Positions 29,507 through 49,541 of a stretch of DNA of 64,000 bases are shown here, in pieces; within the stretch, counting starts at the first letter, position 1; each line of letters opens with the position of its first letter. The position numbers and the translations under genes are program-made. Source of the stretch: Haladaptatus paucihalophilus DX253 (GTDB taxonomy: Archaea > Halobacteriota > Halobacteria > Halobacteriales > Haladaptataceae); contig NZ_AQXI01000001.1 in the NCBI RefSeq assembly GCF_000376445.1, positions 528,962 through 592,961 of the forward strand. The letters are read 5' to 3'. The notes under the pieces are model-generated. The model did no database searches, was not told the DNA's origin, and saw only the letters and a list, made by a program, of their open reading frames with translations.

Positions 29507-29591
29507 GTGCGGGTAGCCAAGCTAGGCCAACGGCGCAGCGCTTAGGACGCTGTCCTGTAGAGGTCCGCCGGTTCGAATCCGGTCCCGCACA
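29507..29591 (+). tRNA. tRNA-Leu, anticodon UAG
   Basis: 85 nucleotides without CCA. Acceptor arms GTGCGGG (29507-29513) and CCCGCAC (29584-29590) pair fully, discriminator A at 29591. Anticodon stem CAGCG/CGCTG (29536-29540, 29548-29552) encloses loop CTTAGGA with TAG at 29543-29545. A long variable arm marks class II. T arm is CCGGTTCGAATCCGG. No intron is needed. Confidence 0.96.
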
Positions 29592-30132
29592 TTTTCATCA
29601 CGAATAACCGGGGAGCACCGCGTAGCGTGTGCTCCCCGCAGCATGAGTGATGAAAATTGCCGAGCAGATTCGAAGTAGACGAGACGCACGCCCGCGCAAC
29701 GTAGTGAGCAGGAACGTCTTGGCGTGGTTCGAATCCGGTCCCGCACATTCTCCGCGAACAACGGTCGTGAGCGGAGAATGCAGCCAACGATTCGAATCCT
29801 GCAAGACACAGCCCGCGGAGTCGAACGGACGTGAGACGAGCAGGACTGTCTTGCTTCGGTTCGAATCCGGTCCCGCACATTTTGCCACGAGCAGCACCGC
29901 GAGTAGCAAAATTGCGCGGTGGATTCGAAGTACGGAAGAAGCAGTCTCACGAGCACCGCGAGTGAGGAAGCGTCTTCAGGTGGTTCGAATCCGGTCCCAC
30001 ACATTCTCCGCGAACAACTGTCGTAAGCGGAGAATGCAGTCAACGGATTCGAAGGAGACCGAACGCAGTCCACAGCGAACGGACGTGAGCGAGCAGAACC
30101 GTTCGGGCGTGGTTCGAATCCGGTCCCGCACA
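29592..30132 (+). repeat. Array of four tandem structured units, each ending in a copy of the tRNA-Leu 3' end
   Basis: The 22-base tRNA end beginning GGTTCGAATCC (tRNA copy 29570-29591) recurs at 29726-29747, 29858-29879, 29982-30003 (one G to A change) and 30111-30132; spacings are 156, 132, 124 and 129 bases. Each unit has hairpin A directly after the copy (arms 29591-29600/29648-29657; 29746-29755/29771-29780; 29879-29885/29906-29912; 30002-30011/30027-30036), then GATTCGAA, which can pair with the next TTCGAATC, enclosing hairpin B. Inner B stems are AGACG/CGTCT, GCAAGACA/TGTCTTGC, GAAGAAGC/GCGTCTTC (one mismatch) and CCGAACG/CGTTCGG: different sequence, same pairing. No gene is seen in this stretch. 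Confidence 0.9.
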
Positions 30133-30229
30133 GTTCCACCGTGAACACCGCAGAGCATGCGCTCGGGGCGAAAATCACATCCCACCGAGCGCACGGGACG
30201 ACAAAAAATCGAAAGAGGCGTTCGCGTGG

Positions 30230-49202: not shown

Positions 49203-49279
49203 ACCTTTTACGACGGTCAGATGTCAACGGTCGCGTGCCGTAGCGCGCGACCGCTGACTGCTTCCCTGTAAAAGGTTCA
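49200..49279 (+). terminator. Three-tier hairpin behind the PAC2 gene
   Basis: Outer stem TGAACCTTTTAC (49200-49211) pairs with 49268-49279; middle stem GTCAG/CTGAC (49216-49220, 49254-49258); inner stem CGGTCGCG/CGCGACCG (49228-49235, 49246-49253). All arms are perfect. It contains the PAC2 stop codon and may end or protect the transcript. Confidence 0.6.
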
Positions 49280-49541
49280 TCAAAAGCAGCAGAAGACGTT
49301 CCTGCTCGCTTCACTCCGCGGGCTGCGACTTCCTGGCCTTCGTTCGCTCCGCTCACGAAGACACTCCTCGCTCGCTTCGCGTTGCTCCGCTCGCTCGTCG
49401 GCCCGGAAAATCTCCGATTTTCCGGAGAGAGTGCTAGCAACCAGTGGTTGTGTCGATTGCTGACTTCTGGTGATTGTGTCAACTGCAACAGTCCACATCG
49501 AAGCCATCGCCTTTTTCCATTCCAACCGCTTTTCCCCACTC
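49280..49541. repeat. Gene-free stretch with a run of small hairpins
   Basis: No gene is seen. Hairpins include CTTCGT/ACGAAG (49338-49343, 49355-49360, loop TCGCTCCGCTC) and CCGGAAAATC/GATTTTCCGG (49403-49412, 49416-49425, 3-base loop). The GCTCGCTTC and CTCCGCTC words resemble, in reverse complement, the loop words GTGAGCGAGC of the array behind tRNA-Leu. Confidence 0.55.

What the first reader, a model, noticed from the sequence alone, without database searches (positions are those of the whole stretch)
29570..30132. Tandem array of structured units built on the tRNA-Leu 3' end
Seen: four units of 124-156 bases follow tRNA-Leu(UAG), each ending in a near-exact copy of its last 22 bases. 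In each unit GATTCGAA can pair with the next TTCGAATC of the copy; inside lies a second stem whose arms differ between units (AGACG/CGTCT, GCAAGACA/TGTCTTGC, GAAGAAGC/GCGTCTTC, CCGAACG/CGTTCGG) yet remain complementary. Hairpin A behind each copy behaves the same way (ATTCTCCGC, ATTTTGC and ATTTTCATCA arms with matching partners). Different sequence with kept pairing is the mark of selection on structure, or of a copying process that makes palindromes. Inference: a co-transcribed structured RNA, a new repeat family that reuses tRNA ends, or a string of attachment-site remnants. No integrase is nearby.
Basis: partly seen in the sequence, partly recalled or inferred. Interest (0 to 1): 0.8.

Follow-up and report, generated by a model that had tools for sequence, protein, structure and literature searches.

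The report
tRNA-tail hairpin arrays of haloarchaea
Downstream of many tRNA genes in salt-loving archaea lie short repeated DNA units, each ending in an exact copy of that tRNA's own 3' end and folding into hairpins matched to that copy; this looks like an undescribed, order-wide family of modular repeats whose cause is not yet known.

Summary
tRNA-Leu(UAG) (29507-29591) is followed by four units of 156, 132, 124 and 129 nt, each ending in the tRNA's last 22 nt. It is not a local oddity: 21 of 47 tRNA genes in this genome (probably Haladaptatus) have a copy of their own 3' end downstream; copies of other tRNAs' ends: none. The family occurs in 45 of 59 sampled genomes of the order and in none of about 100 sampled genomes of the phylum outside it.

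Each unit is hairpin A, an inverted T-arm copy (IR), hairpin-B body, then tRNA nt 52/53-73. IR tracks the adjacent tRNA's T-arm (222 of 245 units). Hairpin B covaries strongly. A and B modules assort almost independently, with breakpoints at the T-arm copies. Copies next to the tRNA are freshest. In the genus, unit number accounts for the intergenic length in a conserved neighbourhood.

Best reading: modular hairpin cassettes exchanged at T-arm sites, kept foldable on the tRNA-sense strand, integron-like in logic but with no recombinase identified (confidence 0.37). A transcribed structured RNA is the main rival (0.28). Plain att remnants, IS200/IS605 and casposon origins are disfavoured.

The parts
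29507..29591 (+). tRNA-Leu(UAG) gene, source of the repeated 3' end
   Evidence: ARAGORN; Rfam RF00005 48.3 bits
29592..29747 (+). unit 1 (156 nt)
29591..29657 (+). hairpin A of unit 1 (ATTTTCATCA / TGATGAAAAT)
   Evidence: sequence; fold
29664..29738 (+). hairpin B of unit 1, from inverted T-arm copy (GATTCGAA 29667-29674) to T-arm copy
   Evidence: covariance model R1, 65.2 bits, E 1.7e-14
29726..29747 (+). tail copy 1: tRNA nt 52-73, 0 mismatches
29748..29879 (+). unit 2 (132 nt)
   Evidence: same unit type in G004
29746..29780 (+). hairpin A of unit 2 (ATTCTCCGC arms)
   Evidence: inverted repeat I2
29786..29870 (+). hairpin B of unit 2
   Evidence: R1 67.7 bits, E 3.8e-15
29858..29879 (+). 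tail copy 2, 0 mismatches
29880..30003 (+). unit 3 (124 nt)
   Evidence: B module shared with Lys, Ser and Glu arrays
29879..29912 (+). hairpin A of unit 3 (ATTTTGC / GCAAAAT)
   Evidence: sequence
29919..29994 (+). hairpin B of unit 3
   Evidence: R1 42 bits, E 1.8e-8
29982..30003 (+). tail copy 3, 1 mismatch
30004..30132 (+). unit 4 (129 nt)
30002..30036 (+). hairpin A of unit 4, near-copy of that of unit 2
   Evidence: inverted repeat I3 and direct repeat D4
30043..30123 (+). hairpin B of unit 4
   Evidence: R1 49.3 bits, E 2.2e-10
30111..30132 (+). tail copy 4, 0 mismatches

Best explanation
These are arrays of modular hairpin cassettes anchored on tRNA 3' ends. Every unit has module A (a hairpin starting at the mature tRNA end), an inverted T-arm copy (IR), module B (a long hairpin), and a direct copy of tRNA nt 52/53-73. 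SHOWN: the anatomy; specificity to the adjacent tRNA; covariation; independent assortment of A and B with breakpoints at the T-arm copies; gain and loss of whole units in a conserved neighbourhood; freshest copies next to the tRNA. INFERRED: the T-arm sequences, in direct and inverted orientation, are the exchange points through which units and modules are inserted, duplicated and swapped, by a recombinase acting in trans or by short-homology recombination. Also inferred: the IR:T-arm hairpin on the tRNA-sense strand is what is recognised, as with folded single-stranded attC sites of integrons. The tail stays identical to the tRNA because an insertion regenerates the functional tRNA end and displaces the old one downstream.
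For: The copied segment is sharply bounded: about 0.98 identity inside, falling within a few nt of G53 on the 5' side and to about 0.5 just after the discriminator. IR fits its own tRNA's T-arm better than other arms in 222 of 245 units. Where units share a B body but differ in T-arm, IR pairs with its own T-arm at 165 of 184 positions against 105 for the other's. A and B shuffle: 297 pairs share A, 156 share B, only 11 share both; worked example Gly-UCC A1B1/A2B2/A1B1 vs Gly-CCC A2B3/A2B1/A1B2. Polarity: first copy 0.28 mismatches, last copy 1.69, in 54 arrays. In the genus, the distance from tRNA to the conserved downstream gene is 121 nt with no full unit, 223-256 with one, 639 with four. 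Exact tandem triplicates and block duplications exist. Sense-strand C-GNA-G loops: 75 of 118 triloops in units vs 3 of 117 in the rest of the window. Some tail-to-tail intervals carry genes.
Against: No recombinase is linked to the arrays: integrase domains are present in genomes with and without arrays, and none lies within about 10 kb of the Leu locus in four relatives. No circular form or mobile carrier was found; phage and plasmid searches gave only tRNA matches. Cassettes moving as whole units would carry the wrong tail to another tRNA, and foreign tails were not seen (control 0.0 in this genome), so exchange between tRNAs must involve modules without tails. Unequal homologous recombination alone could make the tandem duplications. 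The polarity could partly be edge decay. G-U tolerance in the outer helix is equally expected of RNA. This window's own four units gave no C-GNA-G loop in the strict census.
Confidence: 0.37

Rival explanations
1. Selected structured RNA. The array is transcribed with the tRNA, and hairpins A and B act as an RNA, for example a trailer protecting the tRNA end, controlling termination or RNase Z processing, or giving small RNAs. The tail copy and IR are kept paired by selection at RNA level.
For: Strong covariation (score 0.340 vs 0.146 shuffled, 0/500). In the outer helix G-T 83 vs A-C 10 on the tRNA-sense strand. Sense strand folds better than antisense in 123 of 152 units. Orientation is always that of the tRNA.
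Against: Units are absent after about half of the tRNAs, and after the same tRNA in related species. Inner helix G-T 11 vs A-C 9 and hairpin A 21 vs 23 show no RNA-type bias. Terminal loops are GNA triloops, hardly ever GNRA or UNCG tetraloops. No Rfam match except tRNA. An RNA role does not explain why the whole tail to the discriminator is copied or why A and B shuffle. No transcription data were available.
Confidence: 0.28
2. Passive copying. Palindromes and short repeats next to tRNA genes arise by template switching, snap-back synthesis and short-homology recombination in polyploid haloarchaeal genomes; IR is made by copying the nearby T-arm, and gene conversion by the tRNA keeps the tails identical.
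For: Exact tandem and block duplications. Repeat-mediated deletions resembling microhomology end joining are described in a haloarchaeon (PMC3119063). IR matches the local T-arm even when bodies are shared.
Against: The copied segment has the same boundaries in many isotypes. The inner helix, which has no template nearby, also covaries. Unit architecture is constant across the order and absent from about 100 sampled genomes outside it.
Confidence: 0.2
3. Nested remnants of integrated mobile elements: each tail copy is an attR left by a virus or plasmid, later eroded to about 130 nt.
For: tRNA 3' ends are the usual target of archaeal integrases (PMC8371274). In four of nine genomes of the genus other DNA lies between the tRNA and the conserved neighbour.
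Against: Erosion would not leave recurrent, covarying A and B modules and a T-arm-matched IR, nor a uniform length (median 120 nt). No integrase within about 10 kb. No unit on phage or plasmid records.
Confidence: 0.08
4. Non-autonomous transposable elements moved by a known hairpin- or tRNA-targeting enzyme: IS200/IS605 TnpA or a casposase (Cas1).
For: IS200/IS605 enzymes act on single-stranded hairpins (general knowledge). Casposases integrate at tRNA-Leu 3' ends with a 14-bp target duplication (PMC6977970).
Against: This genome and three other array-rich genomes (G061, G072, G058) have no Y1 transposase domain, while array-free genomes do. The repeated segment is 20-22 nt ending exactly at the discriminator, not 14 bp reaching past the gene, and no terminal inverted repeats independent of the tRNA were seen.
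Confidence: 0.03

Closest known systems
Integron cassette arrays with attC sites (IntI, Xer-like tyrosine recombinase)
   Same: Tandem units end in a folded, imperfect palindrome with outer arm, spacer, inner arm and variable terminal structure; strand asymmetry; gradient from an anchor; some intervals carry genes.
   Different: The anchor is a tRNA gene; the outer arm is the tRNA's own T-arm and differs from tRNA to tRNA; most units carry no gene; no IntI was identified or specifically sought; in integrons the bottom strand recombines.
tRNA attachment-site duplications of archaeal integrative elements
   Same: A piece of the tRNA 3' part is repeated downstream; the T stem-loop and 3' end are known integrase targets (PMC8371274).
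   Different: Units of about 100-160 nt without genes, recurrent shared modules, inverted T-arm copy, covariation, no integrase nearby.
REP/BIME and other palindromic intergenic repeats, including haloarchaeal MITE-like elements
   Same: Short palindromic intergenic repeats in many copies per genome.
   Different: Tied to tRNA 3' ends; ends are copied from the host gene and so differ locus by locus; Y1 transposase is absent from several array-rich genomes.
Casposons and CRISPR arrays (Cas1 integration)
   Same: Polar arrays in which a short repeat alternates with inserts next to an anchor; casposons use tRNA 3' ends.
   Different: Inserts are one homologous structured family, not captured foreign DNA; repeat length and boundaries differ; no tRNA-independent terminal inverted repeats seen.

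Membership tests
Integron cassette array | integron integrase IntI next to the array | tested here: not met
   No PF00589 match in the window nor within about 10 kb of the orthologous tRNA in four relatives; IntI-specific model not run
Integron cassette array | attC-like imperfect palindrome with conserved outer arm and variable terminal structure | tested here: met
   Alignment and pair counts; analogy of shape only, bases were not tested against an attC model
Integron cassette array | newest cassettes next to the anchor | tested here: met
   First copy 0.28, last copy 1.69 mismatches in 54 arrays; edge decay not excluded
Integron cassette array | excision as circles and re-insertion | not testable with these tools
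   Needs PCR or long reads
tRNA attachment-site remnant of integrative element | repeat bounds an element with integrase or mobile genes | tested here: not met
   Units of about 130 nt without genes; no integrase nearby; no match on phages or plasmids beyond the tRNA
tRNA attachment-site remnant of integrative element | direct repeat of the tRNA 3' part | tested here: met
IS200/IS605-type or REP element | Y1 (HUH) transposase available in the genome | tested here: not met
   Zero PF01797 matches in G000, G061, G072, G058, all array-rich
Casposon / Cas1 insertion | 14-15 bp target duplication and terminal inverted repeats | tested here: not met
   20-22 nt repeat ending at the discriminator; PMC6977970 for casposon features
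Known structured RNA family (Rfam) | match to a covariance model | tested here: not met
   Only tRNA matches at 29.0-30.6 kb up to E = 1
Functional structured RNA | covariation supporting the structure | tested here: met
   above all shuffles and slid controls on the covariation score; does not separate RNA from single-stranded DNA
Functional structured RNA | expression of a discrete RNA | not testable with these tools
   No RNA data for these loci; two Haloferax transcriptome papers searched by term mention no such RNAs

The most novel reading that the evidence does not exclude
A dedicated site-specific recombination system of Halobacteriales that uses the T-arm of tRNA genes as its anchor and folded, tRNA-matched hairpins as its recombination sites: an archaeal, tRNA-based counterpart of the integron, mostly carrying empty cassettes and sometimes genes.
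Probability: 0.2. Interest if true: 0.92.

Novelty: categorically new. Interest (0 to 1): 0.8.

Why it matters
If right, a large share of haloarchaeal tRNA genes stand at the head of dynamic repeat arrays that my literature searches did not turn up. It would be a rare case of a repeat family whose ends are copied from, and co-evolve with, whichever host gene it sits on. It gives a ready system (about 20 loci per genome, many genomes) to ask how tRNA ends become hot spots of genome change, whether archaea have an integron-like process, and whether these hairpins act as DNA or RNA. It also explains recurrent spurious antisense ORFs (such as 'CGTGFEP...') near tRNA genes.

Tried and rejected
IS200/IS605 transposase as resident driver: rejected, absent from several array-rich genomes. 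Phage or plasmid carriers: only tRNA matches. Known Rfam RNA: none. Integrase presence as a discriminator: uninformative, present in all 15 genomes tested. Casposon target duplication: geometry does not fit. Occurrence outside the order: 0 of 35 tRNA loci and no genome outside the order with a model match. RNAalifold on the mixed 75-sequence alignment gave no structure, so a hand-written structure on the main class was counted instead. A simple ungapped test of hairpin A was weak (15% of units with at least 9 of 10 pairs vs 1% shuffled). Two paper searches failed on syntax; the others found no description of such arrays.

Full report
CHECK OF THE OBSERVATION. tRNA-Leu(UAG) lies at 29507-29591. 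Four units follow, ending at 29747, 29879, 30003 and 30132; their last 22 nt equal the tRNA's last 22 nt with 0, 0, 1 and 0 mismatches. The folded sense strand is far more stable than shuffles (z = -10.2). Rfam sees only the tRNA.

NOT A LOCAL ODDITY. A blast of the array against its own genome hit many other tRNA loci. All 47 tRNA genes were fetched. 21 have a copy of their own last 20 nt (at most 3 mismatches) within 700 nt downstream; one has such a copy upstream (a tandem tRNA-Gly); other tRNAs' 20-mers are never found there (0.0 expected by substitution). Two further genomes fetched nearly completely gave 12/33 and 8/37 in the main sets. The genus is probably Haladaptatus: coordinates in relatives equal those of Haladaptatus plasmid records.

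ANATOMY. Over 253 distinct units (median length 120 nt) the copied segment is tRNA nt 52/53 to 73: identity is about 0.98 inside, 0.97 and 0.89 at the two preceding bases, then falls off, and is about 0.5 just after the discriminator base. Between successive tails lie hairpin A, a reverse-complement copy of the T-arm (IR), and the body of hairpin B, so that IR and the tail's T-arm close hairpin B. IR follows the adjacent tRNA: the score with its own arm beats the mean of other arms in 222 of 245 units, e.g. GGGAATTGAA beside Gly tRNAs with TTCAATTCCC, and CGGAGATTTGAG beside Arg-GCG with TTCAAATCTCCG.

COVARIATION. For 26 diverse hairpins aligned by sequence, a 21-pair structure has 86.9% of cells paired (shuffled 75.9), 57 cells with both sides changed (17.4), score 0.340 (0.146), 0 of 500 shuffles as high; sliding the partner by 1-3 columns gives at most 0.109. 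The inner helix is the cleaner test because its pairs were not used to choose the IR: pair 18-75 is CG 13, GC 12, UA 1 with no failures. Caveats: rows were picked by hand from the main class; IR positions in the larger set were located by pairing, so helix 1 percentages there are inflated; the shuffle control does not remove relatedness.

WHICH STRAND, WHICH MOLECULE. In the outer helix of 120 distinct arms G-T outnumbers A-C 83 to 10, so pairing matters on the tRNA-sense strand; in the inner helix the ratio is 11 to 9, in hairpin A 21 to 23. The sense strand folds better than the antisense in 123 of 152 units with RNA and 114 with DNA parameters. Terminal triloops are C-GNA-G in 75 of 118 cases; GNRA (2) and UNCG (1) are nearly absent among 61 tetraloops. 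In the rest of the window C-GNA-G and C-TNC-G are 3 each of 117. C-GNA-G is the loop of exceptionally stable DNA mini-hairpins (PMC4686876). The strict census finds none in this window's own four units, so this is a family property. Together this favours a folded sense strand and leaves RNA against single-stranded DNA open.

DYNAMICS. In arrays of two or more units the first copy has 0.28 mismatches to the tRNA, the last 1.69 (54 arrays): new units seem to appear at the tRNA. Identical adjacent units (three of 122 nt after tRNA-Phe in G085, two of 125 nt in G068) and duplicated two-unit blocks (Ser in G073) occur. In the window's genus the upstream gene keeps its distance in all nine genomes, while the distance to the downstream gene is 121 nt (no full unit), 223-256 (one unit) or 639 (four) where that neighbour is near; in four genomes other DNA intervenes. 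A and B modules shuffle: 297 unit pairs share A, 156 share B, 11 share both. In G010, Gly-UCC has A1B1, A2B2, A1B1 and Gly-CCC has A2B3, A2B1, A1B2, with near-identical bodies and IR adjusted to the local T-arm. In this genome one B module serves Leu, Lys, Ser and Glu arrays. Tail-to-tail intervals of 2.75 kb (Val) and 1.66 kb (Phe) carry genes, one an MFS transporter.

DISTRIBUTION. A covariance model of hairpin B finds the window's four units (E 4e-15 to 2e-8), 45 places in this genome at E <= 0.1, and 45 of 59 genomes of the order (39 of 44 good ones), up to 38 per genome. In a 120-genome sample of the phylum only members of the order matched. Thirty-five tRNA loci outside the order had no tail copy.

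MECHANISM. The facts ask for a process that adds units at the tRNA, swaps A and B at T-arm copies, and keeps the sense-strand pairing of IR with T-arm. I think recombination at T-arm sites, with folded hairpin B as the recognised object, fits best (0.37); the logic resembles integrons, where folded attC is used (PMC8946536). The enzyme is unknown: tyrosine recombinases are everywhere, none is close to the Leu locus. Y1 transposases are excluded as a general driver. A structured RNA (0.28) and passive copying with gene conversion (0.2) remain serious rivals. Simple att remnants fail on shared modules and covariation.

NOVELTY. No paper found describes such arrays; the closest mention partial tRNA copies with prophages (PMC3119063). 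The library lacks most subscription journals, so priority is not proven. I rate the family as categorically new because I know of no repeat family whose ends are copied from, and covary with, each neighbouring tRNA; if it proves to be moved by a known enzyme class it would drop to a new variant.

Noticed in passing
window 49279-49348 (-); same in G000:C1 at 101888, 1851330, 2593577: A second intergenic repeat family, not at tRNAs, contains the same hairpin-B core (GTCGCAGCCCGCG...GAGCAGGAACGTC) within a larger palindromic element with CTTTTACAGGGA-like flanks.
   Followed up: partly
L364 (G000:C1:2328800-2332700) and L365 (G000:C1:2323300-2326400): tRNA-Val and tRNA-Phe arrays hold gene-bearing intervals between tail copies: 2.75 kb with three small ORFs, two of them without a Pfam match, and 1.66 kb with an MFS transporter.
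   Followed up: partly
window 29522-30178 (-): Antisense of the tail copies gives long spurious ORFs with repeated 'CGTGFEP' motifs, likely source of false gene calls near haloarchaeal tRNAs.
   Followed up: no
G026:C1:2635124-2637763: A tight cluster of about 14 tRNA-like genes on one strand within 2.7 kb, possibly proviral.
   Followed up: no
G010 L221 and L270, between tail copies: A short (about 65 nt) unit of a different type (CTCCCTGYGGTCGTTTGCCG...GTGAACTCCCGGTCGGCGCA) recurs in both Gly arrays.
   Followed up: no
Leu(UAG) locus in G001, G002, G004, G007: Between 1.8 and more than 11 kb of other DNA separates the tRNA from the otherwise conserved neighbour genes, without an integrase within about 10 kb.
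   Followed up: partly
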